Shown here: positions 28,868 through 43,207 of the stretch, one piece after another | How positions within the stretch are numbered: position 1 is the first letter of the stretch | Layout: every line of letters begins with the position of its first letter | Program-made: the position numbers and the translations under genes | Assembly (NCBI GenBank): GCA_020247055.1 | Contig: JADCJL010000015.1 | Location: 1 to 60,679, forward strand | DNA length: 60,679 bases | Source: Acidobacteriaceae bacterium | Lineage (GTDB): Bacteria; Acidobacteriota; Terriglobia; Bryobacterales; Bryobacteraceae | Reading direction: 5' to 3' | Notes under the pieces: generated by a model | The model's input: the letters and a program-made list of their open reading frames with translations, nothing else | Databases searched by the model: none | Told to the model about the DNA's origin: nothing

Positions 28868-30932
28868 TCTTCTTTTCGCGGCGGGGCTCCTGGGGGCCGG
28901 ACGGCCCGAGTTCCGCTACGCCTACCATGTCGTGGGCGATGAACCCACCTCCTGGCCGGCGGTGCTAAGTTCGATCGGCCTAACCCCGGCGGCCGATGGC
29001 CCGTCCCGCCTGCTCGTGCTGCCGGGCGGCACAACGGCCGATCCCACCGTCTGGCTGCCGCGGATCGCCGCGGGCGCGCTGGTGATCCTCGAAGGCGACA
29101 GCCCGCTGGCCGAGGCGCTCGGCATCGTGGCGAGCCGGCAGCGGGTGACCACGCGCAGCCTGGTGGACGTCGCCGATCCAAAGCTGCCGATCATCTGGCA
29201 GGAGTCGCTCGACCTCCCCCGCTTCACGCTGCCGGTCGCGGCCAAAGTCTACGCGCACGAGCGCTGGAGCAGAATGCCGCTGATGGCCGGGCTTCGCCAC
29301 GGTGCGGGCGCGGTTTTGTGGCTCGCCGTCAGCCCGGGTAAGCAGGGTCATGAGCGCTTTCCGTACGCTCTACAGGCGCTGGTGGATCTCGGCTTGCAGC
29401 CGCCGTACCGCAGCGGCCGGCTCTGGGCCTTTTTTGATTCGAGCTACCGTCTGCGCGTCGATCCGGACTACTTCGCCGAGCGGTGGCGGCGGGCCGGCAT
29501 CGGCGCCCTGCACGTGGCCGCCTGGCACTATCACGAGCCCGATCCCGGTCGCGACGAGTATCTCCGCAAGCTCATCGAGGCGTGCCACCGGCGGGCGATC
29601 CTCGTCTACGCCTGGGTGGAACTGCCCCACGTCAGCGAGCAGTTCTGGCAGCAGCATCCCCAATGGCGGGAAAAGACCGCCCTGCTGCAGGATGCCCATC
29701 TCGATTGGCGCAAGCTGATGAACCTGCAGCATCCCGACTGCGCGCGCGCCGTCGCGGCGGGCCTGTCAGCCCTCGTGCGCCGCTTCGACTGGGACGGCGT
29801 CAACCTGGCCGAACTGTACTTTGAATCGCTCGAGGGGATCGACAACCCGGCCCGCTTCACCCCCTTCAACGACAACGCCCGGGCCGCCTTCGCTCAGGCG
29901 CACGGCGTCGATCCGCTAATCATTGTCAAGGATCGCAAGCACGAACTGCGGGCGGTCTGGCTCGATTTCCGGGCCCATCTGGCCAAGCAGATGCAAGAGG
30001 AGTGGCTGGCGCGCCTCGAGGCCGAACGGCGGCAGAAACCCCATCTCGACATCGTGCTGACCCACGTCGATGACCGCTTCGACACCCGCATGCGGGAGTT
30101 AATCGGCGCCGACGCCGGCCGCCTGCTGCCCCTGCTCGATACGCACGACTTCACCTTTCTGATCGAAGACCCGGCCACGATCTGGCATCTGGGTCCGCAG
30201 CGCTATCCGCAGATTGCCGACAAGTACAAGCCGCTCACCACGCACCGGGAAAAGCTGGCGATTGACATCAATATCGTCGAACGCTACCAGGACGTCTATC
30301 CGACCAAACAGCAGACCGGAACGGAGCTGTTCCAACTGGTCAACCTTTCGGCCAAGGCTTTTGCCCGCGTGGCGCTCTACTTTGAGAATTCGATTCTGGC
30401 CCAGGACCTGCCTCTGTTGCCATCAGCGGCTGCGGCGGTAGACCGGGTGGAGTACGTGGCCAACCGGCTCGTGATTGAATCGCCGCGGGGGGTAGGGATT
30501 CCATGGCAGGGCGCGGCGATGGTGAACGGCCGGTTGTGGCCGGTGGCCGATGAGCGGACCTTATGGCTTCCCCCGGGGCCGGTGGCGATTGAGCCGGCGA
30601 TGGCTGCGCTACCCTTGCGGGTGCTGGATTTTAATGGGGAATTGCAGATGGCGGCGGTGCGCGGTGGCGCGGTGGACCTCGCGTATGCGAGTGCCGGGCG
30701 GGCGATCGCGGTGCTCGATGTGCGTCCGGCGACGGTGGAGATTGACGGCGTAGAGGTTACCTTACCGATTCTCGACAGCGGCCCGGGACGATACGCGATG
30801 CTGCTGCCGCGGGGCCAGCACCTGGTTACCTTCAGCGTCCCTGGCTCAAGCAGGGCTCCATCTCCGGAGTCGGCATTGCCGGTCGGGGCGCTACGCCCCA
30901 CTCCTCCGCCCGGTCAACCCCGCGGACGGTGA
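28851..30932 (+). CDS. Exported TIM-barrel hydrolase-like protein (PgaB/GH153-like)
   Basis: A 693-residue protein with a signal peptide (MRLLVSLLFAAGLLGAG). Residues about 185-470 have blocks typical of PgaB-type hydrolase barrels: RLWAFFDSSYRLRVDPDYF, GALHVAAWHYHEP, LIEACHRRAILVYAWVELPHVS, and FDWDGVNLAEL with acidic residues, then HDFTFLIEDP. The preceding domain (about 20-170) and the C-terminal beta domain are unassigned. A role in cleaving or binding the polymer exported by the upstream barrel protein is inferred. The last 35 residues (SSRAPSPES...) are low-complexity and antisense to the PilZ-J gene end, so the functional part may end near residue 658. Confidence 0.7.
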   Translation: MRLLVSLLFAAGLLGAGRPEFRYAYHVVGDEPTSWPAVLSSIGLTPAADGPSRLLVLPGGTTADPTVWLPRIAAGALVILEGDSPLAEALGIVASRQRVTTRSLVDVADPKLPIIWQESLDLPRFTLPVAAKVYAHERWSRMPLMAGLRHGAGAVLWLAVSPGKQGHERFPYALQALVDLGLQPPYRSGRLWAFFDSSYRLRVDPDYFAERWRRAGIGALHVAAWHYHEPDPGRDEYLRKLIEACHRRAILVYAWVELPHVSEQFWQQHPQWREKTALLQDAHLDWRKLMNLQHPDCARAVAAGLSALVRRFDWDGVNLAELYFESLEGIDNPARFTPFNDNARAAFAQAHGVDPLIIVKDRKHELRAVWLDFRAHLAKQMQEEWLARLEAERRQKPHLDIVLTHVDDRFDTRMRELIGADAGRLLPLLDTHDFTFLIEDPATIWHLGPQRYPQIADKYKPLTTHREKLAIDINIVERYQDVYPTKQQTGTELFQLVNLSAKAFARVALYFENSILAQDLPLLPSAAAAVDRVEYVANRLVIESPRGVGIPWQGAAMVNGRLWPVADERTLWLPPGPVAIEPAMAALPLRVLDFNGELQMAAVRGGAVDLAYASAGRAIAVLDVRPATVEIDGVEVTLPILDSGPGRYAMLLPRGQHLVTFSVPGSSRAPSPESALPVGALRPTPPPGQPRGR

Positions 30933-31716
30933 TGGCGAAGCGGCCATAGTCGGTGCGGGCGACAAACCCGTGCTTGCGGAGATACCAGAGCGTAAACTCC
31001 AGGTGCTCACGCGGGATGCCGAGCAACTCCTCAAACTCCTGCACGGCGACGCCGGGATTGTGCGTCTCGCGCATCCGTTTGACGTAGAGCAGCGCCAGCA
31101 CCGCCCGGCGCTGATCGCGTTCGGCCGTCACGCCTCCGCCGGCCGACTCCTGGCTGAAAACCCGCCATTGCCGTTTCTGCGCGCGGGACCGTTCGACATC
31201 ATAGGCGGCTCGCCGGACCGGGTCCCCCAGGACGCGGTACGCCATCACCAGCGCCTTGAAGAGCAGTTCGTTGCCCGTCTCCTGGTTTTCGGGATGGTAC
31301 CGTTTGGCCAGAATCCGGTAGAGCCGGTGGATCGTGTCCGGTTCGGCCTTCGGGTGAATCTGCAGGAATTCGTAGTAGTCCAGTTCCTCGTCAGCGGGAT
31401 TGGCCGCGGAGCTGCCCTCGAACGAAATACCGGCGCGGTAGGCCTTGCCCGACTGGCTCACCCAACTGACCACTCCCTGCGGCCGGCCCGGACCCTGCGC
31501 CACGCTGGCCGGGGCGCCGTCCATTAACAGCGGCTGGCCCGGCTCCAACTCCCAGTGCACCAACACCCCTACCCCGGACTGGGAAAAGTTTTCGATGGCG
31601 GCCGGAATCCTCTGCCATTTGCCGTTGGGCAGCTGCAGCCAGAGCTGCACCTCCATCGACGCGGGCGCAGGCAGGCGGGGCCGGCGGCGTCTTTCCTTCT
31701 GGCGAAGACCATCCAT
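30832..31716 (-). CDS. PilZ - J-domain - winged-helix fusion protein
   Basis: A 294-residue cytosolic protein with three modules. The PilZ domain (about 8-102) has a basic run at 9-14 and NFSQSG (Asn43 to Gly48), matching the RxxxR and D/NxSxxG c-di-GMP-binding patterns. A J domain (about 112-178: DYYEFLQIHPKAE, LYRILAKRYHPE, AYRVLGDPVRRAAYD) has HPE (141-143) instead of HPD, the motif that stimulates Hsp70 ATPase. A C-terminal region (about 200-265: AVLALLYVKRM, FEELLGIPREHLEFTLWYLR, DYGRFAITVRG) looks like a winged helix. It may link c-di-GMP to a chaperone or transcription target. The ATG at 31716 excludes a long overlap with the GntR gene. Confidence 0.8.
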   Translation of the reverse strand: MDGLRQKERRRRPRLPAPASMEVQLWLQLPNGKWQRIPAAIENFSQSGVGVLVHWELEPGQPLLMDGAPASVAQGPGRPQGVVSWVSQSGKAYRAGISFEGSSAANPADEELDYYEFLQIHPKAEPDTIHRLYRILAKRYHPENQETGNELLFKALVMAYRVLGDPVRRAAYDVERSRAQKRQWRVFSQESAGGGVTAERDQRRAVLALLYVKRMRETHNPGVAVQEFEELLGIPREHLEFTLWYLRKHGFVARTDYGRFAITVRGVDRAEEWGVAPRPAMPTPEMEPCLSQGR

Positions 31717-31759
31717 AGGAAGCGTATCGGCGCCAGACGGCAAAGTCTGAACGGCAGCT

Positions 31760-32392
31760 TTAGCGCTGAATGATCCGCTGGATGCGAACCCGGTCAGCGA
31801 GGCAGAGCGCCACGCGGTGGGCGACCGCCCGTTGGCTGCCTTCGTAGAGCGTCTGGGTGATGCGAAGCATGGCCGAGCCCTGAAGGACCACCGCCTCGAT
31901 GGTCTCTTTGGCGAACAGATCGTGCGCCGCCAGCCACGTGAGCAGGGGAGTGCCGCCCACTTTGCGCAGCTCCCGTTCATTCCGGGCCGGCAGCCAAATC
32001 TGCTCTTCGATGACGCGGGCGGCTCCGGCGGTCCACACCCGGCTGAGCATGCCGCAGGTTTGCCCGGCCAGCGGCGGCGGCAGCACGGCGCCTTCGGCCA
32101 GCATCTGCGCCGCGGCCAGCCGTACCACTAGCTTGCTGCCGCACAGTTCATGCGGATCCTGCAAACGCTGGCCCCCGGAGGTCGCCGGGGCGACGAACGT
32201 ACCGGAGCCCACCCGCCGGATGACGCTGCCTTCCTGCTGCAGTTGCGCCACGGCGTGGCGCGCCGTCATGTTGCTCACCCCGAACCGGGCCGCGAGATCG
32301 CGCTCGGAAGGCAGTTTATCGCCCGGTTGGAGTTTGCCGGAGCGAATCTGCTCGGAGATCGCCTGATGAATGCGAAGATATGCGGCCGCCAT
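31760..32392 (-). CDS. GntR-family regulator (HutC/UTRA type)
   Basis: A 210-residue repressor-type protein. The N-terminal winged helix (about 5-70) has the GntR signature GDKLPSERDLAARFGVSNMT followed by AVAQLQQEGSVIRRVGSGTFV. The C-terminal UTRA-like ligand domain (about 85-205) has the LxR...EEQIWLPA pattern and ends in ADRVRIQRII. HutC-type regulators respond to sugars, histidine derivatives or phosphonates. Here it is divergent from a sugar isomerase-like gene across 36 bp that contains a perfect palindrome, so it probably controls that operon and itself. Confidence 0.9.
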   Translation of the reverse strand: MAAAYLRIHQAISEQIRSGKLQPGDKLPSERDLAARFGVSNMTARHAVAQLQQEGSVIRRVGSGTFVAPATSGGQRLQDPHELCGSKLVVRLAAAQMLAEGAVLPPPLAGQTCGMLSRVWTAGAARVIEEQIWLPARNERELRKVGGTPLLTWLAAHDLFAKETIEAVVLQGSAMLRITQTLYEGSQRAVAHRVALCLADRVRIQRIIQR

Positions 32393-32401
32393 GAGGAAAG
32401 T

Positions 32402-32416
32402 GCTATAGAGTATAGC
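32402..32416. promoter_or_regulatory. Candidate GntR operator
   Basis: GCTATA-GAG-TATAGC is a perfect 6+3+6 palindrome in the middle of the 36-bp region between the divergent GntR and TIM-barrel genes, 10 bp from the GntR start codon and 12 bp from the other. Size, spacing and the shared TATA core suit a GntR dimer site. Assignment is by position and symmetry. Confidence 0.6.
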
Positions 32417-32428
32417 TAATTACGCGCC

Positions 32429-33319
32429 ATGCACACCCTGCCTCTTCTCCTTCATTCGGTCAGTTATTCGGGCTCCTGGGGGCAGACGGCCCTTACCGTC
32501 GAGCAGGTCGCCAACAAGGCCGCTGCTTTTTGTTTTGACGGCGTGATGCTGATGGCCAAGCGGCCCCACCTCAGTCCGCTCGACTGGGACGCGGCGCGCC
32601 GGCGGCAGCTGCGCGACCATCTGGCCGCCGCCGGCCTGCGTCATAACGTGCTGGCCGGTTACACGAACTTCACCGCCGACCTCGAACACGCCGAGATCCC
32701 CCAGCGCGAGATGCAGATTTATTACGTCGAGGCGCTGGCGCAACTCGGCGCCGATCTCGGCGCTCCCGCCGTTCGCATCTTTACGGGCTACGAACATCCC
32801 GCCGCCTCCTTTTCCGCCCAATGGCGGATGATTGCCGATGCCCTCGGCGAATGCGCCCACCGCGCCGGCCGCCTCGGCGTTACGCTCCTGCTGCAGAACC
32901 ACCACGATGTCGCCGCCGGCTGGGAGAGCTTTCGCGATCTGCTGGCCGAGGTCAACCACCCGAGCTTGAAGGCCGGCTTCGACGCCTGGGCTCCCGCGCT
33001 GCACGGCGATGACCTCGCCGCCGCGGCCACGGCCCTCGCCCCCTGGATGGCCCACACCACCGTTGCCGACTACGTCCGCCGCCCCCGCCATCGCTATGAG
33101 CCGGCCCTAGTCAACTATGTCCCGGCCACCCCCTATGTGCAGGCCGTGCCGTTTGGCGAAGGCTTCATCGACTACCGCGCCTTCTTCAGCGCCGCCGTCG
33201 AGGGCGGGTACAATGGAGGGGTGGCTTACGAGATGTGTTCACCGCTGCTCGGCGGCGGCGCGGAAGACAATCTGGACCGCTACGCCCGTGCCTTTGTCGC
33301 CTGGATGCGCGCTCGATGA
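32429..33319 (+). CDS. Sugar phosphate isomerase/epimerase-like TIM barrel
   Basis: A 296-residue xylose-isomerase-like barrel (AP_endonuc_2 family). It has a first strand with LLLHSVSYSG, LLLQNHHDVAAG in place of the more common E-N-H metal strand, KAGFDAWAPAL with Asp, MAHTTVADY with His, and VAYEMCSPL with Glu. These give most of a divalent-metal site, with Gln replacing the first Glu. A related subset of the family carries the same QNHHD phrase, so the change is probably native to that subset. Substrate unknown, likely a keto-sugar or polyol. The stop overlaps the antiporter start as ATGA. Confidence 0.85.
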   Translation: MHTLPLLLHSVSYSGSWGQTALTVEQVANKAAAFCFDGVMLMAKRPHLSPLDWDAARRRQLRDHLAAAGLRHNVLAGYTNFTADLEHAEIPQREMQIYYVEALAQLGADLGAPAVRIFTGYEHPAASFSAQWRMIADALGECAHRAGRLGVTLLLQNHHDVAAGWESFRDLLAEVNHPSLKAGFDAWAPALHGDDLAAAATALAPWMAHTTVADYVRRPRHRYEPALVNYVPATPYVQAVPFGEGFIDYRAFFSAAVEGGYNGGVAYEMCSPLLGGGAEDNLDRYARAFVAWMRAR

Positions 33320-34512
33320 GTGAGCACGCCGGCTCCCAACTGCCGCTGGCGATGCTCCTCGTCTTCGGCACGGCGAAAATCCTCGGCGAGATCTCCGAAC
33401 GCCTCGGCTTGCCCAGCATCGTCGGCGAGATTCTGGCCGGGGTGCTGCTCGGCGCCAGCGTTCTGAATTGGGTAGAGCCGGGCCAGATCACGCAGTTCTC
33501 TGACCTCGGCGTCATGTTTCTGCTCTTCCGCGTGGGCCTTGAGGTGAAGGCTTCGGACCTGTTTCAAGTGGGCCGCGTGGCCTCGCTGGTGGCGTTGCTG
33601 GGGGTGTTGCTGCCCTTTGCTATGGGCTATGCGATTTATATCTACACGGGTTCCAATCAGATCGAGGCGCTCTTTGTCGGCGCCGCGATGGTAGCGACCT
33701 CCGTCGGCATTACCGCCCAGGTACTCGCCGCCAAGGGTCTGCTCAACGTGCGGGCCAGCCGCATCATTCTGGCCGCCGCCGTGATCGACGACATCCTCGG
33801 CCTGATCGTTCTGGCGATCGTTTCGAGCATGGCGCGGGGCACTTTCGACGTCCTGCAATTGACCACCACCGCCGGCCTCTCCATCGGCTTTACTCTCTTT
33901 GTGCTGAGCTTCGGCAGCCGGACCATGGGCCGTGTGCTGCCCGGTATCGACCGGCGCCTGCGCGGCGGCGAGTCGCAGTTTTCGCTCGCGATGATTCTTC
34001 TGTTCGCACTCGCCGTCTTTGCCAGCTATGCCGGTGTGGCGGCCATCATCGGAGCCTTCCTGGCCGGCGTGGCGCTCGCGGAATCGGTCTCGCATCGCGT
34101 GCAGGATCTGGCGCAGGGCGTTACCGAACTCCTCGTGCCCTTCTTCCTCGCCGGCATTGGCCTCGCGCTGGACGTCAACGTTCTGCGGGATCCCCGTACG
34201 CTGACCCTGGCCGCGGTCATCACCGTGGCGGCGATTGTCTCAAAGCTCCTCGGCTGCGGCCTCGGCGCCCTGTCGCTCGGCTGGCCGGATGCGCGCCGCA
34301 TCGGCGCCGGCATGGTGCCGCGCGGGGAAGTCGGTATGGTCGTGGCGCAGTTGGGCGCCGCGATGGGGATTGTGAGCAAGGCGACATATGGCGTTGTCGT
34401 GGTGATGGCCGTGATGACCACCGTCGTCGCCCCGGTCCTGCTCGCCGTGACGTTCCGGTCGCTGGCGCAAATGCCGGCCGATCCGGATGAATCGCCCATC
34501 CGGATCGAGTAG
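33316..34512 (+). CDS. CPA2-family cation/proton antiporter
   Basis: A 398-residue membrane protein with about 12-13 hydrophobic helices. It has early ISERLGLPSIVGEILAGVLLG, the unwound-helix motif ATSVGITAQVL, and the paired acidic residues AAVIDDILGLIVL that bind Na+/H+ in NapA-type antiporters. Later come FLAGVALAES and GMVPRGEVGMVVAQLG. There are no RCK/TrkA domains. It probably exchanges Na+ or K+ for H+. Its start lies inside the preceding stop codon (ATGA), so it is translated with the sugar isomerase-like gene, an unusual pairing. It could move a charged sugar product, but that is a guess. Confidence 0.92.
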   Translation: MSEHAGSQLPLAMLLVFGTAKILGEISERLGLPSIVGEILAGVLLGASVLNWVEPGQITQFSDLGVMFLLFRVGLEVKASDLFQVGRVASLVALLGVLLPFAMGYAIYIYTGSNQIEALFVGAAMVATSVGITAQVLAAKGLLNVRASRIILAAAVIDDILGLIVLAIVSSMARGTFDVLQLTTTAGLSIGFTLFVLSFGSRTMGRVLPGIDRRLRGGESQFSLAMILLFALAVFASYAGVAAIIGAFLAGVALAESVSHRVQDLAQGVTELLVPFFLAGIGLALDVNVLRDPRTLTLAAVITVAAIVSKLLGCGLGALSLGWPDARRIGAGMVPRGEVGMVVAQLGAAMGIVSKATYGVVVVMAVMTTVVAPVLLAVTFRSLAQMPADPDESPIRIE

Positions 34513-34959
34513 GGGCGATTGGGCCCGCAGGAGATCCCGGCGATTGCTCCGGTACCGGTCATTCACCATGTGCAGCATCATGCCTCCGCGCACCGCCTCA
34601 AACCCGATGAGGTAGTTGGTGGCCTCCTGGCCCGGCGGCTCCCGGGTCAGCCGGCTGCCGTGCAACCGGTACTTACCGGCCTCGGCGTCCGAGGTCTGCC
34701 GCGCGACTCATACCGTCCCTTGGCGAACGAGATATCGACAGAGGCCGCCGCTCCGGCGTGCCGGCCAGCCGCGGAAAGACGGCCTGATTGCGCGAAAAGG
34801 CCACCACCACCTGTCACGAGCCATTCTGCGCCCCGGGGCCCCAGCATATTCGAGACCTTTACCCGCATCTCTCCCTGGCTGCGCATGGCAAGGGGGATCC
34901 GGATCGAGTGGTAAAGGCGCACCGCCATGGGGCCCGTGCCAAACTCTTAGAATTAGTCT
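34513..34959. other. Intergenic region with a broken minus-strand frame
   Basis: No intact gene. On the minus strand, 34928-34647 (beginning MAVRLYHSIRIPLAM) is open, and a protein-like stretch in another frame (AEAGKYRLHGSRLT, NYLIGFEAVRGG) follows at about 34700-34570. Joining them would need a frameshift. They may be the remains of a small lipocalin-like protein. No promoter or terminator is convincing. Confidence 0.35.
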
Positions 34960-35664
34960 GTGCTTGCCGAACTCGCATCGCTCACCCTGCTTGGCGTAAC
35001 CCACCTCGCCGGCCCCACCCACCACGTGCAGGGCATCGACGTCGAAGGCGACTTTCTCTGGGTCTCGGCCGTCGAAAAGGCGACCCACAAAGGCTACCTC
35101 TCCCGGTTCAATTGGAAGACCGGTCAGCGTCTCGCCACGGTCGAAGTGCAGGACGGCGATCGCTACCACCCCGGCGGCCTCCAACTGGCCGGCGATTCGC
35201 TCTGGGTGCCCGTCGCCGAGTATCGCCGAGAGTCGAGCGCCTGGGTGCAGAAACGCAACAAAATTTCCCTCGCGCTCGAAGCCCAGTTCGCCGTACCGGA
35301 TCACATCGGCTGCGTGGCCATCGCCAACGGCGTGCTCTGGGGCGGCAACTGGGACTCGCGCCTGCTCTACCGCTGGCGCCCCGACGGAACCCTGCTCGAC
35401 CGGCGGCCCAACCCCACCGGCACCGGCTTCCAGGATCTCAAAGCCACCGGCGGCCGCCTCGTCGGCAACGGCGTCAAGAGCCGCACGGCCGGGGTCATCG
35501 AGTGGCTCGACCCGGAAACTCTCGCCGTCGAAAAGTCCATCACCACGGGCCTTACCGACCGCGGCGTCCGCTTCTCGAACGAGGGCATGGCCATCCGCGA
35601 TGGCGTTCTCTATCTCCTCCCCGAGGACGATCCCAGCCGTCTGTTCCGCTACCGCCTGCCTTGA
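34960..35664 (+). CDS. DUF6454-family beta-propeller-like protein
   Basis: A 234-residue protein resembling DUF6454. The order THHVQGID, FLWVSAVEK, YHPGGLQLAGDSLWVPVAEYR, DHIGCVA, LWGGNWDSRLLYRW and ITTGLTDRGVRFSNEGMA suggests four or five propeller-like blades with repeated LW.. strands. No enzymatic residues are known for the family. The start codon is GTG without a good SD, and the N-terminus (LAELASLTLLGVTHLAG) is only weakly hydrophobic, so export is uncertain. It precedes the sulfatase by 15 nt and is probably in the same operon. Confidence 0.75.
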   Translation: MLAELASLTLLGVTHLAGPTHHVQGIDVEGDFLWVSAVEKATHKGYLSRFNWKTGQRLATVEVQDGDRYHPGGLQLAGDSLWVPVAEYRRESSAWVQKRNKISLALEAQFAVPDHIGCVAIANGVLWGGNWDSRLLYRWRPDGTLLDRRPNPTGTGFQDLKATGGRLVGNGVKSRTAGVIEWLDPETLAVEKSITTGLTDRGVRFSNEGMAIRDGVLYLLPEDDPSRLFRYRLP

Positions 35665-35679
35665 TATGCTGGCGAGGCA

Positions 35680-37323
35680 ATGCTGAATCGCCGCCAATTC
35701 CTCGCCGCCGCCTCTGTTGGTGCAGCGGCCGCCCCCCGCTCCCGGCCCAACATCATCGTCATCATTACCGACGACCAGGGCTACGGCGATCTTTCCCTGC
35801 ATGGCAACCGCGACCTCGCCACGCCCCACATGGACGCCATCGCCAACCGGGGCGCGCAGTTCACCCAGTTTCAGGTCTGCCCCGTCTGCGCCCCCACCCG
35901 CGCCGGACTGCTCACCGGCCGCTACAACTATCGCACCGGCGTCGTCGACACCTACCTCGGCCGCGCCCTCATGGACACGAAAGAGGTCACCATCGCCGAA
36001 GCGCTCCAGTCCGCCGGCTACCGCACGGCAATCTTCGGCAAATGGCACCTCGGCGACAACTACCCCCTCCGCCCCGGCGACCAGGGATTCGCGGAGGCCC
36101 TCGTCATCAACGGCGGCGGCCTCGCCCAGCCCGGCGACCCGCCGCCCGGCCAGTCTTACTTCAACCCTGTCCTCCGCCGCAACGGCAAATACGAAAAGTC
36201 CGCCGGCTACTGCACCGATATCTTCTTCCGCGAAACGATCGAGTTCATCGAAAAGAACAAAACGAAGCCATTCTTCATCTACCTCCCGACCAACGCCCCG
36301 CACACCCCGCTGCAGATCGACGAGAAGTACAGCCAGCCCTACAAAGCCAAGGGCCTCGATGACGTCACGGCCAAGATCTACGGCATGCTCCAGAACGTCG
36401 ACGAGAACATCGGAAAGCTGCAGGAACAGCTGACGCGGCTCCAACTGCGCGACAACACCATCGTCGTCTTCCTCAGCGACAACGGCCCCCAGCAGCCCCG
36501 CTTCAACGGCGGCATGCGCGGCCTGAAGACCACCGTCTATCAGGGCGGCATCCGCGTACCCTGCTTCCTGCAGCGGCCCGCCCGCGTCAAGCCCGGCCTC
36601 AAGATCGATCGCATCGCCTCCCACCTCGACCTGCTGCCCACCCTGCTCGCCGCCGCCGGCGTCCCGCTGCCCAAAGTACCGCTCGATGGCCGCAGCCTGC
36701 TGCCCCTGCTCGAAAGCAAGTCCGCCGGCTGGAAGGACCGCAGCATTCATACGCAGTGGCACCGCGGCGACGCGCCGGAGCTGTTCCGCTCCCATGCCGT
36801 CCGCACGCAGCGCTGGAAACTCGTCAACGGCGTCGAACTCTACGATATGGACGCCGACCCGGCTGAAGCCAACAACGTCGCCGCCCGGCATCCCGACGTC
36901 GTGGCCCGTCTGCGGGGCGAGACCGAAGCGTGGTTCCGCAGCGTAGCGGCCTCGCGCGGCGGCTACGCCCCGCCCCGTCTCGCCATTGGCTATCCCGGCG
37001 AGAACCCGACGCTGCTGACGAGGCAGGATTGGCGCGGGCCCCGCGCCAGCTGGGAAGCCAAGGGCATCGGCTATTGGGAGGTGGAAGTGCTTCGCGCGGC
37101 CTCCTACGATGTCGACCTGCTCTTTGCCCCCGCCGCCGCCGCCGGCACGGCGGTCTTCAAGCTCGGCAACCTCGAGCAGTCCGCCCCGTTCGCCGCCGGC
37201 GCTCGTACGGTCCGCTTCTCCGGCCTGCGCCTGCCTGTCGGCCCGGGGCGCCTCGAACCCGTGCTGCGGATCAACGGCGAAGAGCTCGGCGTGCAGTACG
37301 TCGAGATCAAGCAGGTAACCTAG
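35680..37323 (+). CDS. Tat-exported sulfatase (FGly type)
   Basis: A 547-residue arylsulfatase-family enzyme that hydrolyses sulfate esters. It has a twin-arginine signal (NRRQFLAAASVGAAAA), then PNIIVIITDDQGYGD with metal ligands Asp31-Asp32, and the formylglycine motif CAPTRAGLLTGR with Cys70 as the residue to be converted. Further landmarks are FGKWHLGD, PFFIYLPTNAPHTP, FLSDNGPQ and WKLVNG. A C-terminal beta domain of about 120 residues (from about 425) is extra and may bind carbohydrate. Likely acts on sulfated polysaccharide or another sulfate ester in the periplasm. A formylglycine-generating enzyme is not seen in the window. Confidence 0.93.
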   Translation: MLNRRQFLAAASVGAAAAPRSRPNIIVIITDDQGYGDLSLHGNRDLATPHMDAIANRGAQFTQFQVCPVCAPTRAGLLTGRYNYRTGVVDTYLGRALMDTKEVTIAEALQSAGYRTAIFGKWHLGDNYPLRPGDQGFAEALVINGGGLAQPGDPPPGQSYFNPVLRRNGKYEKSAGYCTDIFFRETIEFIEKNKTKPFFIYLPTNAPHTPLQIDEKYSQPYKAKGLDDVTAKIYGMLQNVDENIGKLQEQLTRLQLRDNTIVVFLSDNGPQQPRFNGGMRGLKTTVYQGGIRVPCFLQRPARVKPGLKIDRIASHLDLLPTLLAAAGVPLPKVPLDGRSLLPLLESKSAGWKDRSIHTQWHRGDAPELFRSHAVRTQRWKLVNGVELYDMDADPAEANNVAARHPDVVARLRGETEAWFRSVAASRGGYAPPRLAIGYPGENPTLLTRQDWRGPRASWEAKGIGYWEVEVLRAASYDVDLLFAPAAAAGTAVFKLGNLEQSAPFAAGARTVRFSGLRLPVGPGRLEPVLRINGEELGVQYVEIKQVT

Positions 37324-37336
37324 GAGTTCAAACCCT

Positions 37337-38038
37337 ATGCTCTCTCTTAACCTCGACGGTAAGGTCGTCATTATCACCGGCGCGAGCGGCGGCCTCGGCA
37401 TCCCGGTGACGAAAGCATTTCTTGAAGCCGGCGCCCGCGTCGTGGGGGTCGATCGTGTGCCGCGCTCAAAGAGCCCGGAGCACCCGGCCCTAACCCACGT
37501 CGCCGTCGCCCTCGAAGACTTCGCCGCCGTCGAAGAGCTCGTCAAAGATACGATGCTCCTGCACGGCCGCATCGACGCCGTCGTGCATCTGGTCGGGGGC
37601 TTTGCCGGCGGGCTGCGCCTCGAACAGACAAGCGACGAGACCTGGGACAAGATGTTCGCCGTCAATCTCCGCCCGGCCATCCATCTGGCCCGCGCCGTGC
37701 TGCCCGTCATGCGCGCCGCCAAACGGGGCGCGTTCCTGGCCATCGGCAGCCCAGCCGCCCTCGAAGCGGTGCCGACCCTCGGCGCCTATGCCGCCGCCAA
37801 AGCCGCGCTGATCTCGCTCATCAAAACCATCGCCGTCGAAAACCGCGACGCCCGCATTCGCGCCAACATCGTCGCCCCCGGCACCATGGACACCCACGCC
37901 AACCGCACCGCCATGCCCGACTACGACTCCACCCGCTGGGTGCAGCCTGCCAACGTCGCCAGCCTCCTCGTCTGGCTGGCCAGCGACGCCGGCGCCGAAA
38001 TCACCGGCGCCGTACTCCCGCTCCCCGGAAGAGAATAG
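37337..38038 (+). CDS. Short-chain dehydrogenase/reductase
   Basis: A 233-residue classical SDR. It has the TGASGGLG cofactor motif (14-21), Asn110 in FAVNLRP, Ser138 in IGSPAAL, and the catalytic Tyr151 and Lys155 in YAAAK. The acidic Asp39 after the second strand (VVGVD) favours NAD+ over NADP+. It would oxidise or reduce a hydroxyl or keto group, substrate unknown. TAGGAG, spanning the sulfatase stop, serves as SD 10 nt before the ATG. It is co-oriented and 12 nt from the next gene, so it belongs to a cluster with sulfatase and the hydrolase fusion. Confidence 0.9.
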   Translation: MLSLNLDGKVVIITGASGGLGIPVTKAFLEAGARVVGVDRVPRSKSPEHPALTHVAVALEDFAAVEELVKDTMLLHGRIDAVVHLVGGFAGGLRLEQTSDETWDKMFAVNLRPAIHLARAVLPVMRAAKRGAFLAIGSPAALEAVPTLGAYAAAKAALISLIKTIAVENRDARIRANIVAPGTMDTHANRTAMPDYDSTRWVQPANVASLLVWLASDAGAEITGAVLPLPGRE

Positions 38039-38050
38039 TTCTTCATCCCT

Positions 38051-40726
38051 ATGCGTTTCCTGCTTCTGTTCGCCGCCCTGCCGCTACTTGCCGCCGAGCT
38101 GCGCGTGATGACCTTCAACGTGCGCTACCCCAATCCCGGCGATGGCCCGGATATCTGGGAGAACCGGCGCGACCTCCTCGTCGACACCATCCGCGATGCC
38201 GCCCCCGACGTCATGGGCACGCAGGAGCTCTTCTACACCCAGGGTCAGTACATCGCCGAAAAGCTCCCGGGCTACGCCTGGTTCGGCCTCAGCCGCCGCG
38301 GCAATAAAGAGGACGAGCACATGGGCGTCTTCTACAAAACCTCGCGCCTGCGCCTCGAGGACTCCGGCAACTTCTGGCTCTCGGAGACGCCCGACGTCCC
38401 CGGCTCAAGCTCCTGGAACATGTCGCTGCCGCGGATGGTCACCTGGGCCATCTTCACCGACCTCGCCACTCGCCAAAAGTTCACTTACTTCAATACCCAC
38501 TTTGCCCACCGCGGCCAGCTCGATGAAGCGGCCCGCGTCGCCTCGGCCAAGCTCATCGCCTCGCGGCTCGGCCTGGCCTCCCCCTTCGTCCTCACCGGCG
38601 ATTTCAACACCGCCCCCGGCAGCGAGGCCTACCGCATTCTCACCGCCACCCTCACCGATGCCAAGTCCGTCGCCGCCGCCACCAGCGGCCCCGAAGGCAC
38701 CTTCCACGGTTTCAAAGGAACCGTCGGCCCCAACCGCATCGACTGGATTCTCTTCCGCGCCCCCCAGTGGAAGGTCAAGCGCGTCGACGCCATCACCCGC
38801 CACCACGCCGGTCGCTACCCCAGCGACCATCTCCCCGTGCTGGCCGTCTTCGACACCGGCGCCGAACCCGCTTTCGACCTCCTGCTCAAAGGCGGCACCG
38901 TCATCGATCCCAAAAACCAGCTCAACGCCGTCCGCGATGTCGCCATCCACAACGGCAAAATCGCCGCCGTCGCCGCCGATATCCCCCGCGCCCAAGCCAA
39001 ACGCGTCGTCGAAGCCCGCGGCCTCTACGTCGTCCCCGGCCTCATCGACCTGCACGCCCACGTCTACACCGGCCCCAACGGGCAGGTGCTCGCCGGCGGC
39101 GATCAATCCGTCCCGGCCGACATGCACAGCTTCCGCGCCGGCGTGACCACCCTGGTCGACGCCGGCAGCTCCGGCTGGCGCAATTTTCCCGACTTCCGCG
39201 ACCGGCTCATCCGCCCCGCCTCCACCCGTGTGCTGGCCTTTCTCAACATCGTCGCCGGCGGCATGGGCGGCCCCAACGAGCAGGACCCGGCCGACTTCGA
39301 TCCGGAAGAAGCCGCCCGCATGGCCGCCGCGAACAAAGATCTGATCGTGGGCATCAAAACCGCCCACTGGATGGCTCCGGACTGGTTTGCCGTCGACCGC
39401 GCCGTGCAGGCCGCCGCCCTCGCCAAGCTGCCTGTGATGGTCGACTTCGGCGTCATCCACATCGAACGGCCGCACCGCGATCTGTTTCTCGATAAGCTCC
39501 GCCCCGGCGATATCTACACGCATATGTACCGGCCCTTTGATCCCGTGCTCGATCAAGACGGCAAGCTGCGGCCGCACTACCGCGCGGCGCGCGAACGCGG
39601 CATTCTCTTTGACGTGGGCCACGGCTCGGGCTCGCTGCTGTTTCAATGGGCCGTCCCCGCCATGCGCCAGGGCTTCGCGCCCGACACGATCTCTACCGAC
39701 CTCCATACGAGCAGCGCCAACGGCGGCATGAAGAACATGCTCGCCACCATGTCGAAATTTCTCAACATGAACATGCCGCTCGTGGACGTGATCCGCGCCT
39801 CCACCTGGGCGCCCGCGCAGGCCATCCGCCGCCCCGCGCTGGGCCATCTCACGGCCGGCGCCGAAGCCGATGTCGCCCTGCTCCGGCTCGACAAAGGCCA
39901 GTACGGCTTCCTCGATGTCGGCGGGTCGAAGATCAGCGGCACGCAGCTGCTCCAATGCGAACTCACCCTCCGCGCCGGGCGTGTCGTCTGGGATCAAAAC
40001 GGCATCGCGGCCGACCCCTGGGAGATGCAGAGGGCGCAGGCGTTCGAGTACAAGCCCGGTCTGAAGCTGACGATGGTGGGTCGCCGCGGCGCGGCCCCGA
40101 AGCCCGCCGTGCTCTGGATTCACGGCGGCGGCTGGACCGGCGGTCGCCCGGAGATGTTCCTGCCCGCCGCCGAGTACAGCGCCGCGCAGGGGGCGATCGG
40201 CTTCACCGTCCAGTACCGCCTTGGCGCGGTGGCGCCGGCCGTGGAAGACGTGGAAGCTGCCCTTGTCTGGATCCGCCAGAACGCGGCCGAGTTGGGTGTG
40301 GACCCGCAGCGCGTTGTCGCGGCCGGAGACAGCGCTGGAGGCCACCTGGCACTGGCGCTGGGAACCGTTACCCGCGAGCGCGCCAACGCCATCCTGGCCT
40401 TCAACCCCATCCCCGATCTCACCGGCAAGTGGGTGGACCGCACGGCCTCGCCCGCCGAGGCCCGCCGCCTGTCGCCGCTGTTTGCCATCGACGCCCGCAC
40501 GCCGCCCGCCCTACTCCTGCACGGGCGCAACGATACCGTCGTACCCTTCACCGAGTCCGAGCGTTTCGCGCGGGCCCACGGGAAAGCGAGGGTGATTCTT
40601 TATCCCGGCTCCCAGCACGCCTTCGTCGTTCCCGGCTACACGGCCACGCCCGCCGAGATCGACCGCGCTCTCACGGACAGCTTCGGCTGGCTGCGCGAGA
40701 TCGGCCTGTTACCACTGCAGCCCTAA
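38051..40726 (+). CDS. Exported three-domain hydrolase fusion (EEP phosphatase - amidohydrolase - alpha/beta hydrolase)
   Basis: A single 891-residue reading frame. After a signal peptide (1-15) comes an endonuclease/exonuclease/phosphatase domain (about 16-275: VMTFNVRY, GTQELF, LTGDFNT, RIDWILF, YPSDHLPV), all catalytic blocks present. Residues about 278-660 are a dihydroorotase/hydantoinase-like amidohydrolase with His335-x-His337 (GLIDLHAHV), a Lys in VGIKTAHW, His in IYTHMYRPF and Asp in STDLHT. Residues about 670-891 are a BD-FAE-like alpha/beta hydrolase with the HGGGW oxyanion motif, nucleophile in GDSAGG (about 761), Asp in GRNDTVVP and His in GSQHAFV. No stop or frameshift separates the parts. 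Its 3' end overlaps the convergent barrel gene by 18 bp. The substrate is unknown, and all three active sites look intact. Confidence 0.88.
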   Translation: MRFLLLFAALPLLAAELRVMTFNVRYPNPGDGPDIWENRRDLLVDTIRDAAPDVMGTQELFYTQGQYIAEKLPGYAWFGLSRRGNKEDEHMGVFYKTSRLRLEDSGNFWLSETPDVPGSSSWNMSLPRMVTWAIFTDLATRQKFTYFNTHFAHRGQLDEAARVASAKLIASRLGLASPFVLTGDFNTAPGSEAYRILTATLTDAKSVAAATSGPEGTFHGFKGTVGPNRIDWILFRAPQWKVKRVDAITRHHAGRYPSDHLPVLAVFDTGAEPAFDLLLKGGTVIDPKNQLNAVRDVAIHNGKIAAVAADIPRAQAKRVVEARGLYVVPGLIDLHAHVYTGPNGQVLAGGDQSVPADMHSFRAGVTTLVDAGSSGWRNFPDFRDRLIRPASTRVLAFLNIVAGGMGGPNEQDPADFDPEEAARMAAANKDLIVGIKTAHWMAPDWFAVDRAVQAAALAKLPVMVDFGVIHIERPHRDLFLDKLRPGDIYTHMYRPFDPVLDQDGKLRPHYRAARERGILFDVGHGSGSLLFQWAVPAMRQGFAPDTISTDLHTSSANGGMKNMLATMSKFLNMNMPLVDVIRASTWAPAQAIRRPALGHLTAGAEADVALLRLDKGQYGFLDVGGSKISGTQLLQCELTLRAGRVVWDQNGIAADPWEMQRAQAFEYKPGLKLTMVGRRGAAPKPAVLWIHGGGWTGGRPEMFLPAAEYSAAQGAIGFTVQYRLGAVAPAVEDVEAALVWIRQNAAELGVDPQRVVAAGDSAGGHLALALGTVTRERANAILAFNPIPDLTGKWVDRTASPAEARRLSPLFAIDARTPPALLLHGRNDTVVPFTESERFARAHGKARVILYPGSQHAFVVPGYTATPAEIDRALTDSFGWLREIGLLPLQP

Positions 40727-43207
40727 GTTGAACCGGAACGTCCGGCCATCGTTCAGCGTATTCGTGATGAACCCAAACTCGGGCGCGCCCAGAATGCTGC
40801 CGGGCTCCGCAAACTGCGGCGTATTGAGCAGATTGATCGACTCGGCCCGCACGAGCAGTTTCATCTCGCGGGGCAGCTGCCAGCTCTTGGCCAGGGCCGC
40901 GTTCACGTTGCGAATCGCCCCTTTGCGGAACACGTTGGCCCCCAGGTTGCCCGTCTCGGCGCCCGCGTCGATGTAGCGGAAGGCGCTCCGTGGCAGGCGC
41001 GCCACCGACGTATCCGGGTTGCCGTAGCTGCGCCCCAGAATCGCGGGGTCGAGCAGGTTGGGGCGGTCCCCGCCGTTGCCGTCGACGTTGCCGAAGCCCG
41101 GTCCGTCGAGGGTGGTCAGGTTGAACGGCGTCCCCTGCTTGAGCAGCGCCACGGTGCTGAGGCTCCAGCCCTTGGGCAGGTCGTAGCTCACCCGGGCCAG
41201 GAAGGCGTGGGGCTGGTCGAACTGGCTGCGGCCTTTGCGGTCGCTGTGCGTTTCGTACTCGCTCTGGCTGCGCGACAGGCGCGAGTCGGCGTCGTAAGCC
41301 GTGTTGGTGTAGTCGGCGCCGAGGTCGAGCGCCTTGCTGAACCAGTAAGCGGCATCGATGGTGAATCGCTTGACGCGCGGGGCGACCACGGTGAGCCGCC
41401 CGGCGTCGAAGTAGCCGCGCGAACCGTTCAGCACCAGGCGGACATCGGCCAGCTCGGCAATCGGGCGCCGTTCGTTGATCGTCGCCGTCGTGAGCGGAAT
41501 GCCGGGCGTGGGGTGGGCGCGGTTGGTGTACCACATGATCGGCAGCTTATGCGCGCGGCTGCCAGCGTAGCCGGCCTGCACCCGCCATCCCGCGCCGAGC
41601 GCCCGCTCCCAACTGAAGTTGTACTGGTAGTGGTAAGGCGTCGCCAGCTCGCGGTCGATCAGATACAGATTGCCTTTGGGCGCAACGCCACTGCCGGCCA
41701 GCGGATTGAGCAGACTGGGAGCCAGGATCACCAGCTTGACGCTCAGGGGCGGGGAAAAGCGAATCTGCGAGTAGGAGACGGGCAGAATCTCGCCGAAGTG
41801 CACCCCGGCGGCCCCGCGCAGCACGCCGGCGCCTTTCGGCAGCCGCCAGGCAAAGCCCGCGCGTGGTGCCACGTTGTTCCAGTCCGCGTCGTAGGGAATT
41901 TCGTTGCGCCGGTTCACCTCCGTGGGCCGGCCCACCATCTCCCAGCGCAAACCCAACTGGAGCGTGAGATTGGTGTTTACCTTCCAGGAGTCCTGCGCGT
42001 ACAGCACGCCCAGCGTCTGCCGGAACCCGCGGTGGATATCGCCCACCGCTACCAGGTACTGCGACGGCGTGCCGAGCCGCATGTTCTCAATCCCCGTCCG
42101 GCCGAAGTCGTTCGAGAAGGATAGGTAGCCGCGGTGCGAGTCCGTCTCCTGGCCGTTGAACTGCCGGCGCGTAAGCCCGCCGCCGACGTTGATCGTGTGC
42201 CGCCCGAAGGTCGCGGCGTATTGCGCCTCCTGCCGGTAGGTATTCTGCGCCCGGTCGATCGGGATGGCGCCGAGCGGCCCCAGCGTGGTCAGCCCGGCCG
42301 TCGAGATCATCGGGCCCACGGCGTTCGGCTCCGGTACGAGCAGCGAGCCGATGCGGTCGAAGCTCGAGGTCACGAGCAGCTTGCCGCCGCGATTCCAGGT
42401 GAGGCGGGCGCGGTGGGAGCGCGTGGTCGTATCCGGGTTCTGGCCGGCGATCAACTGAAAGGCGTCGACGGTCTGGCTCGTGTACTGGTAGTGGGCGAAG
42501 AGCCGATCTTTCGCCGTCAGGTCCTGTTCGAGGCGGATGGCGCCGTCGTTGCTGTCGATGCGCTGCGGGGCGTTGGTGTTCAACTGGCGGGTGCCATTGG
42601 CGCGGTTCGGCAGCTCCGGGCCGAAGGCGTCGAGGTAGCGCTGCACCAGCGCCCGCACGGCCGGGTCCGTCGCCAGCGCGGTGCGCTCGTCGGCGTAGGG
42701 CACCAGCACGTTGCCGTTCACCTGCCCGCGCAGCTTCTCCTGCGAGCCCTGCAGCGAAACGAACCCACCGCGCCAGAGGCTGCCGCCGGTCTGGAAACCG
42801 TAGCGGTTCTCCCGCGCCGGCTTCACATCGCCCACCTGGAAAAAGGCGCGCGCCGAAAAGACGCTGTTCTGGTGGTTGGCAAAGAGGTTGCCGTGCCAGC
42901 CGGCCCGGCGCTGCGCCGCCAGCGCAATCGGCCCCGGGGCCGGGGTACCGAACTCGGCGCCGAAGTAGCCGCGATCGGCCCGGAACTCCTCGACGAGCGT
43001 CGCTGTCGCCCCCAGCCGGACGTTCAGCTCTTTCAGAGCGTTGTTATCCACCAGGTTGAACTGGATGTTCTCATTGCGGCGGCTTTCGCCTTTGGCCGCG
43101 TCCTCTTTACCGAGCAGATTGAGTTCGACGCGCTTCTGCGCATCGCCGGCCTCGGGCTTCTGCGCCCAAAGAGCGCCAGGGAGAAAAAGCAAAAAAAGGT
43201 ATCTCAA
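40709..43207 (-). CDS. TonB-dependent-receptor-like outer-membrane barrel with reduced plug
   Basis: An 832-residue outer-membrane protein with signal peptide (MRYLFLLFLPGALWAQ) and a long barrel of alternating aromatic strands, including SFDRIGSLLVPEP, QDSWKVNTNLTLQLGLRWEM and a final FRFNLGLQW. The C-terminal strands resemble Oar-like receptors (KSWQLPREMKLLVRAESINLLN, then FAEPGSILGAPEFG). It lacks the N-terminal carboxypeptidase-regulatory domain, and the plug appears shortened (NENIQFNLVDNNALKELNVR, then ATLVEEFRADRGYFGAEFG). The start is a TTG overlapping the regulator's stop as TTGA, so it is translationally coupled to the kinase/regulator pair upstream. Confidence 0.75.
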   Translation of the reverse strand: MRYLFLLFLPGALWAQKPEAGDAQKRVELNLLGKEDAAKGESRRNENIQFNLVDNNALKELNVRLGATATLVEEFRADRGYFGAEFGTPAPGPIALAAQRRAGWHGNLFANHQNSVFSARAFFQVGDVKPARENRYGFQTGGSLWRGGFVSLQGSQEKLRGQVNGNVLVPYADERTALATDPAVRALVQRYLDAFGPELPNRANGTRQLNTNAPQRIDSNDGAIRLEQDLTAKDRLFAHYQYTSQTVDAFQLIAGQNPDTTTRSHRARLTWNRGGKLLVTSSFDRIGSLLVPEPNAVGPMISTAGLTTLGPLGAIPIDRAQNTYRQEAQYAATFGRHTINVGGGLTRRQFNGQETDSHRGYLSFSNDFGRTGIENMRLGTPSQYLVAVGDIHRGFRQTLGVLYAQDSWKVNTNLTLQLGLRWEMVGRPTEVNRRNEIPYDADWNNVAPRAGFAWRLPKGAGVLRGAAGVHFGEILPVSYSQIRFSPPLSVKLVILAPSLLNPLAGSGVAPKGNLYLIDRELATPYHYQYNFSWERALGAGWRVQAGYAGSRAHKLPIMWYTNRAHPTPGIPLTTATINERRPIAELADVRLVLNGSRGYFDAGRLTVVAPRVKRFTIDAAYWFSKALDLGADYTNTAYDADSRLSRSQSEYETHSDRKGRSQFDQPHAFLARVSYDLPKGWSLSTVALLKQGTPFNLTTLDGPGFGNVDGNGGDRPNLLDPAILGRSYGNPDTSVARLPRSAFRYIDAGAETGNLGANVFRKGAIRNVNAALAKSWQLPREMKLLVRAESINLLNTPQFAEPGSILGAPEFGFITNTLNDGRTFRFNLGLQW

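What the first reader, a model, noticed from the sequence alone, without database searches (positions are those of the whole stretch)
38051..40726. Three complete hydrolase domains in one exported protein
An EEP phosphatase/nuclease, a metal-dependent amidohydrolase and an alpha/beta esterase are fused in a single frame, each with recognisable catalytic residues. I know of no standard family with this order. It suggests sequential processing of a substrate bearing phosphate ester, cyclic amide and acyl or carbohydrate ester bonds, next to a sulfatase and an SDR.
Basis: partly seen in the sequence, partly recalled or inferred. Interest (0 to 1): 0.72.

Follow-up and report, generated by a model that had tools for sequence, protein, structure and literature searches.

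The report
Genuine three-enzyme exported fusion protein
One lineage of uncultured acidobacteria has joined three complete hydrolases (a phosphate-ester cutter, a metal-dependent amidohydrolase and an esterase) into a single, apparently exported protein encoded beside a sulfatase, which is a clean but untested clue to an unknown decorated substrate.

Summary
The 891-residue frame at 38051-40726 is one protein with a signal-like N-terminus, an EEP domain (about 16-268), a PRK09237/cog3964-type amidohydrolase (275-652) and a BD-FAE/HSL-like esterase (about 660-888). It is not a joining artefact: seven genomes of one genus encode it full length (82-96% identity to ours), all three domains show low dN/dS, and the catalytic residues checked are invariant in 7 of 7. 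An eighth genome carries the scar of an internal deletion in the same gene. Seven sister species keep the EEP gene alone, with its stop at the fusion joint; most stand-alone amidohydrolases have their own signal-like N-termini. So separate enzymes were fused, apparently once, within one genus. The 'cyclic amide/hydantoin' reading is not supported: the middle domain scores far below hydantoinase, allantoinase and dihydroorotase cut-offs and sits with cog3964. It carries Asp where solved relatives have the strand-5 His. Most likely it strips phosphate and acyl groups from a sulfated, acylated sugar-like compound in the periplasm; the substrate is inferred. No full-length match was found elsewhere in the samples searched. 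New variant (architecture) of known enzyme kinds.

The parts
38051..40726 (+). fused gene, 891 aa, EEP - amidohydrolase - esterase
38051..38095 (+). signal-peptide-like N-terminus MRFLLLFAALPLLAA (residues 1-15), near-identical in 7 of 7 orthologues
   Evidence: alignment; judged by eye; stand-alone EEPs have a similar N-terminus
38096..38854 (+). EEP phosphatase/phosphodiesterase domain (residues 16-268); N23, E59, N148, H150, D184, N186, D231, D259, H260
38855..38872 (+). EEP-amidohydrolase joint (residues 269-274); the stop of stand-alone EEP genes aligns with residue 270 or 271
38873..40006 (+). amidohydrolase domain, PRK09237/cog3964-like (residues 275-652); H335, H337, K436, D465 (in place of the strand-5 His), H491, H524, D550
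40028..40714 (+). BD-FAE/HSL-like alpha/beta esterase domain (residues 660-888); HGGG 691-694, S761, D828, H856
37337..38038 (+). SDR oxidoreductase, ends 12 nt before the fused gene
35680..37323 (+). type I sulfatase with CAPTR motif and a Tat-like N-terminus (RRQFL, by eye), ends 13 nt before the SDR
34960..35664 (+). DUF6454 protein, ends 15 nt before the sulfatase
33319..34512 (+). Na+/H+ exchanger-family membrane protein (start not settled)
32429..33319 (+). xylose-isomerase-like TIM barrel, first gene of the presumed operon
31763..32392 (-). GntR-family DNA-binding part, divergent from the presumed operon
40709..43207 (-). outer-membrane beta-barrel / TonB-receptor-like protein, convergent; its end overlaps the fused gene by 18 bases

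Best explanation
A fixed fusion of three exported hydrolases. An EEP gene that in sister species lies near a sulfatase-SDR pair was joined, at the place of its stop codon, to the mature part of a secreted amidohydrolase and to an esterase, so that one signal peptide would export all three active sites as one chain. Mechanism (inferred): in the periplasm the EEP domain removes a phosphate ester, in the manner of the mannosyl-6-phosphatase it resembles. The amidohydrolase and the serine esterase remove acyl groups (acetyl or other carboxyl esters/amides). The Tat-like sulfatase encoded two genes upstream removes sulfate, and the SDR, the isomerase-like TIM barrel and the antiporter handle the freed sugar or hydroxy-acid, under the divergent GntR-type regulator. 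The fusion mainly fixes stoichiometry and co-localisation. Shown: single gene, orthology, low dN/dS, intact motifs, stand-alone relatives of the first two domains, gene context. Inferred: export, operon, regulation, substrate class, activity of each domain.
For: Full-length in 7 of 237 family genomes including our own, one genus, 82-96% identity to ours, no internal stops, same gene order in the six named relatives. Low dN/dS in every domain and, on 17 codons, across the first joint. The stop of stand-alone EEP genes aligns with fused residue 270 in 7 of 8 examined and 271 in the eighth. Stand-alone amidohydrolases begin with a signal-like sequence, by eye, in all but L007 and the truncated L008 of 39. 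The EEP tree makes the seven fused rows one group (100/99), next to seven stand-alone EEPs of the same genus. G011 keeps sulfatase and SDR, then the signal-peptide coding start runs directly into the amidohydrolase end and a stop-ridden esterase: the remains of the same fused gene. Nearest solved EEPs are 3g6s, 3mpr and 4c1r, the last named mannosyl-6-phosphatase. The nearest outside esterase match (G058, 46%) is fused to a GDSL esterase. One family amidohydrolase is fused to a CBM9-like carbohydrate-binding domain. The best stand-alone amidohydrolase match in the order (G202, 61-62%) is followed after 12 nt by a sulfatase, with an MBOAT O-acyltransferase two genes on.
Against: Neither substrate nor activity was tested. 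Only 1 of 40 amidohydrolase loci (flanks of at most 1.5 kb, searched with this window's sulfatase) has a sulfatase nearby, and it is the G202 one, so that link is not general. No glycoside hydrolase was identified directly beside the gene among the neighbours scanned; a GHL10-like protein lies 7 kb away. The strand-5 His replaced by Asp (D465) might alter or weaken metal binding. G011 lost the gene while keeping its neighbours, so the enzyme is dispensable at least there. EEP and the esterase family are broad in substrate. The fused gene is also absent as a whole from 12 of the 19 genus genomes, some of them incomplete.
Confidence: 0.45

Rival explanations
1. A fusion of convenience: three hydrolases with unrelated substrates were joined by chance rearrangement and kept because one signal peptide and one promoter serve all; there is no shared substrate.
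For: Joints are short with no long linker; G011 lost the gene while its neighbours stayed; amidohydrolase paralogues sit in varied contexts.
Against: All three active sites kept with low dN/dS in seven species; placed in a tight gene row with 12-15 nt gaps.
Confidence: 0.3
2. The EEP domain is a nuclease or phospholipid phosphodiesterase and the protein salvages phosphate and carbon from extracellular nucleic acid or lipid, the other two domains removing acyl groups.
For: EEP is a broad superfamily that includes DNase I-like and sphingomyelinase-like members (recalled); the protein has a signal-like start.
Against: The EEP part matches solved EEP proteins including a mannosyl-6-phosphatase over 230-250 residues; the only NCBIfam match of the domain, exodeoxyribonuclease III, scores 18.9 bits against a cut-off of 99.
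Confidence: 0.12
3. The amidohydrolase domain is catalytically altered (Asp465 in place of the metal-binding strand-5 His) and now does other chemistry or serves as a binding or scaffold domain between two active enzymes.
For: Position 465 is Asp in 44 of 46 aligned rows (7 fused, 37 stand-alone) and His only in L006 and L007, the two most distant; the four best solved relatives have His at the aligned place.
Against: The other ligand-type residues are invariant in the seven fused proteins, and the Asp is shared by stand-alone paralogues, so it looks like a working variant site.
Confidence: 0.12
4. Assembly or joining artefact.
For: The window is from a 358-contig assembly.
Against: Seven genome assemblies, from several projects by their titles, share the frame, with dS of 0.2-1.0 over the whole gene in the pairs measured, and G011 carries a scar of it.
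Confidence: 0.01

Closest known systems
EEP proteins 3g6s, 3mpr and 4c1r (the last named mannosyl-6-phosphatase)
   Same: Matches over residues 16-266 or 16-250 with the motifs aligned
   Different: Those chains are 267-298 residues long; here the domain heads a three-domain chain
cog3964/PRK09237 amidohydrolases (2ogj Atu3266, 8je0, 8wzy, 2ics; NF006689)
   Same: Full-domain match above the NF006689 cut-off; HxH, Lys, His, His, Asp present
   Different: Asp465 in place of the strand-5 His; signal-bearing chain; fused on both sides. A misannotated dihydroorotase from cog3964 is cited in PMC12524618 (passages read); that it is Atu3266/2ogj and its acyl-ester substrate are recalled
BD-FAE/HSL-type esterases (5ao9, 7bfn; PF20434)
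   Same: HGGG and Ser-Asp-His triad in our protein; aligned over most of the domain
   Different: No start of its own here; fused behind an amidohydrolase
Multi-esterase and GH-esterase fusions (e.g. 6mly, named bifunctional GH43-CE; G058 BD-FAE-GDSL)
   Same: More than one hydrolase in one chain
   Different: Different partners; neither has EEP plus amidohydrolase by name or Pfam match

Membership tests
EEP superfamily (PF03372) | Profile match above the curated cut-off | tested here: met
   65.6 bits against 24.5, residues 20-260
EEP superfamily (PF03372) | Conserved Asn, Glu, His, Asp-x-Asn and terminal Asp-His (motif set recalled) | tested here: met
   N23, E59, H150, D184, N186, D259, H260 in 7 of 7; stand-alone rows N23, D184, N186, D231, D259 in 23 of 23; E59, H150 and H260 were not counted in the stand-alone rows
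Amidohydrolase/deacetylase family NF006689 (cog3964-like) | Score above the curated cut-off | tested here: met
   412.9 against 371
Amidohydrolase/deacetylase family NF006689 (cog3964-like) | Strand-5 His metal ligand as in solved relatives | tested here: not met
   Asp465; His in the four aligned PDB sequences. Filed as a divergent branch, not as a typical member
Amidohydrolase/deacetylase family NF006689 (cog3964-like) | Hydrolysis of acyl esters or amides | not testable with these tools
   needs assay
Hydantoinase / allantoinase / dihydroorotase | Score above any of their NCBIfam cut-offs | tested here: not met
   48.9 of 393, 56.9 of 631, 56.6 of 442 bits; 25 of 65 matches shown
BD-FAE esterase (PF20434) | Profile match and Ser-Asp-His with HGG(G) | tested here: met
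   95.4 bits against 26.8; residues invariant in 7 of 7; in 22 other esterase rows Ser, Asp and His in 22 of 22, HGGG-region Gly in 12 with gaps in 10
A known three-domain family with this order | Same order outside this genus | tested here: inconclusive
   None beyond the seven in 237 family, 257 order or 396 phylum genomes, best 2-3 candidates scored in each, nor in the peptide-pattern scan of 84,980 species' genomes; other phyla were searched only by that scan, which finds close relatives only

The most novel reading that the evidence does not exclude
A trifunctional, single-chain decoration-stripping enzyme that, with its neighbour sulfatase, removes phosphate, acyl and sulfate groups from one natural compound. 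Its middle domain belongs to a secreted acidobacterial amidohydrolase branch with an unusual Asp-containing metal site and possibly a new activity.
Probability: 0.25. Interest if true: 0.6.

Novelty: new variant of a known kind. Interest (0 to 1): 0.42.

Why it matters
A fusion is a natural statement that functions may belong together. This one joins three widespread, broadly annotated hydrolase types in a compact gene row, so it narrows the search for the substrate of the acidobacterial cog3964-like paralogues (six other near-full-length matches to the domain in this genome, L002-L007, plus one split match). It also places the fusion within one genus, with an unfused sister state and a decaying copy, a clear case of how multi-enzyme secreted proteins arise and are lost.

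Tried and rejected
Apparent continuation of stand-alone amidohydrolases beyond their stop towards the esterase (for example G030 with one TAA) was checked for G030 and rejected as an alignment tail: the frames behind the stop look unrelated and no esterase match lies in 15 kb around it. Of five long open frames around amidohydrolases, four (L130-L133) proved to be ordinary genes whose signal-like start lies inside the frame; L134 is a real fusion with a CBM9-like domain. An amidohydrolase-esterase intermediate was looked for and not seen: among the 111 loci then held, only loci of the seven fused genes held more than one of the three domains, and 40 amidohydrolase and 30 EEP loci showed neither partner domain. 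Separate translation of the domains: no in-frame start is shared by all seven at the first joint; ATG675 is shared by 7 of 7 near the second joint but lies in the esterase's N-terminal segment, so internal initiation there is unlikely but not excluded. Two mixed alignments stacked unrelated domains and were discarded. Rows left out: loci covering under 60% of a domain; the amidohydrolase alignment and tree used 33 of 39 stand-alone rows and 4 of 7 fused ones, and were made before G202 and G260 were found; the EEP tree used 23 stand-alone rows. Structure prediction gave no model: the job was interrupted and the tool was then off, so no fold search was made. Paper searches on the architecture listed nothing; searches gave listings from which I opened only PMC12524618 (passages). 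That is no proof of absence in print.

Full report
What is there. The frame 38051-40726 (+) encodes 891 residues. Pfam and NCBIfam place an EEP domain at 20-260, an amidohydrolase at 274-652 and a BD-FAE/Abhydrolase_3 esterase from about 681. The N-terminus reads by eye as a signal peptide. The gene follows DUF6454, a sulfatase and an SDR with gaps of 15, 13 and 12 nt. Further upstream are a TIM-barrel protein, a Na+/H+ exchanger-family protein and a divergent GntR-type regulator. An outer-membrane beta-barrel / TonB-receptor-like protein faces it and overlaps its end by 18 bases. The promoter and terminator scan of 31900-41000 found no more than shuffled sequence gives, so the operon is inferred from spacing and synteny alone.

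Is the fusion real? Full-length matches occur in 7 of 237 genomes of the family, 7 of 19 of the genus, including our own. The same seven are the only full-length matches in 257 genomes of the order, and our own is the only one in 396 genomes drawn from the phylum. These searches scored only the best 2-3 candidates per genome. A peptide-pattern scan of 84,980 species' genomes returned 14 loci: 6 with the full fusion, 7 with EEP alone and 1 weak match. I matched the six named loci L038-L043 to G016, G001, G009, G017, G006 and G015 by their identical match values. The seven proteins align with a single one-residue gap, in G006. dN/dS from six pairs is 0.065-0.152 (EEP), 0.076-0.180 (amidohydrolase), 0.077-0.122 (esterase) and 0.07-0.21 on the 17 codons of the first joint. 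All catalytic residues checked are invariant in 7 of 7. Gene order is conserved in the six named relatives, from the TIM barrel to the two genes behind the outer-membrane protein (a response regulator and a histidine kinase by eye); in L042 about 750 bp separate the fused gene from the outer-membrane protein gene.

How it arose. Other species of the genus have a stand-alone EEP at 66-69% identity (7 genomes: G003, G004, G005, G007, G013, G014, G018). In 4 of these 7 the held flank also shows the sulfatase-SDR pair upstream (L046, L048, L049, L050, taken as G003, G007, G013, G004 by match values); the other three do not show it within the held flanks, one of them on a 4.3-kb contig. The stop of stand-alone EEP genes aligns with fused residue 270 in 7 of 8 examined and 271 in the eighth. 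The EEP tree joins the seven fused rows (100/99) and places them beside the seven stand-alone rows of the genus. Stand-alone amidohydrolases carry signal-like N-termini, by eye, in all but L007 and the truncated L008 of 39, and most end in a short tail that the fused copy lacks. In the amidohydrolase tree the four fused rows used group with a stand-alone one from another genus, G030 (100/97, bootstrap marked as rough). In G011 the sulfatase and SDR frames are open. The coding start of the signal peptide then runs directly into the amidohydrolase end, about 1.9 kb of the fused gene is missing, and the esterase remnant has stops and frame shifts. So the fused gene existed in an ancestor and was lost there.

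What each part does. EEP: nearest solved relatives are 3g6s, 3mpr and 4c1r, the last named mannosyl-6-phosphatase; a sugar phosphatase is the best guess. Amidohydrolase: of the 25 of 65 NCBIfam matches shown, only the amidohydrolase/deacetylase family passes its cut-off; hydantoinase, allantoinase and dihydroorotase models do not. The closest solved chains are 8je0, 2ogj, 8wzy and 2ics. 2ogj may not be a true dihydroorotase according to PMC12524618, which also cites a paper by Ornelas and others on a misannotated dihydroorotase of cog3964 (passages read); that paper is not held, and its acyl-ester substrate is recalled. Position 465 is Asp in 44 of 46 rows and His in L006 and L007, while the aligned solved relatives have His. 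Esterase: nearest solved chains 5ao9 and 7bfn, with an intact triad and HGGG in our protein.

Context clues to the substrate. The neighbour sulfatase has the CAPTR motif. The best stand-alone amidohydrolase match in the order (G202) is followed after 12 nt by a sulfatase and, two genes on, by an MBOAT O-acyltransferase, but this is 1 of 40 loci. One family amidohydrolase is fused to a CBM9-like domain. The best outside esterase match is fused to a GDSL esterase. Together these favour a decorated sugar-like substrate; none proves it.

Verdict. Its hydantoin reading should be replaced by acyl-ester/amide hydrolysis. I rate the fusion as established, the shared-substrate mechanism at 0.45, and the whole as a new domain architecture of known enzyme kinds, with an unusual metal-site variant worth a test.

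Noticed in passing
window 34513-34946: About 434 bases between the Na+/H+ exchanger gene and DUF6454 that have no match in L038, L040, L042 and L043 at that place; a search with 34513-34957 found it only once in the own genome.
   Followed up: partly
window 39443-39445 (D465) and stand-alone loci L002-L005, L008, L015-L037, L112-L120: An acidobacterial branch of cog3964-like amidohydrolases with Asp in place of the strand-5 metal His (44 of 46 rows).
   Followed up: partly
L134:871-2802 (+): Amidohydrolase of the same family fused behind a CBM9-like carbohydrate-binding domain.
   Followed up: partly
L089:796-2490 (-): BD-FAE esterase fused to a GDSL esterase; nearest outside match of the fused esterase.
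   Followed up: partly
L125:5305-11777 (-): Five amidohydrolase paralogues in tandem in G072.
   Followed up: no
L049:4399-5568 (+): A Schlafen/AlbA_2-HATPase_c_4 gene between the SDR and the stand-alone EEP.
   Followed up: no
L124:4846-8698 (-): Two amidohydrolase genes beside a SelA-like PLP enzyme.
   Followed up: no
window 30835-32392 (-): The GntR-type DNA-binding part and a long overlapping frame behind it lie in different frames; G011 shows the same layout, so the gene structure is unclear.
   Followed up: no
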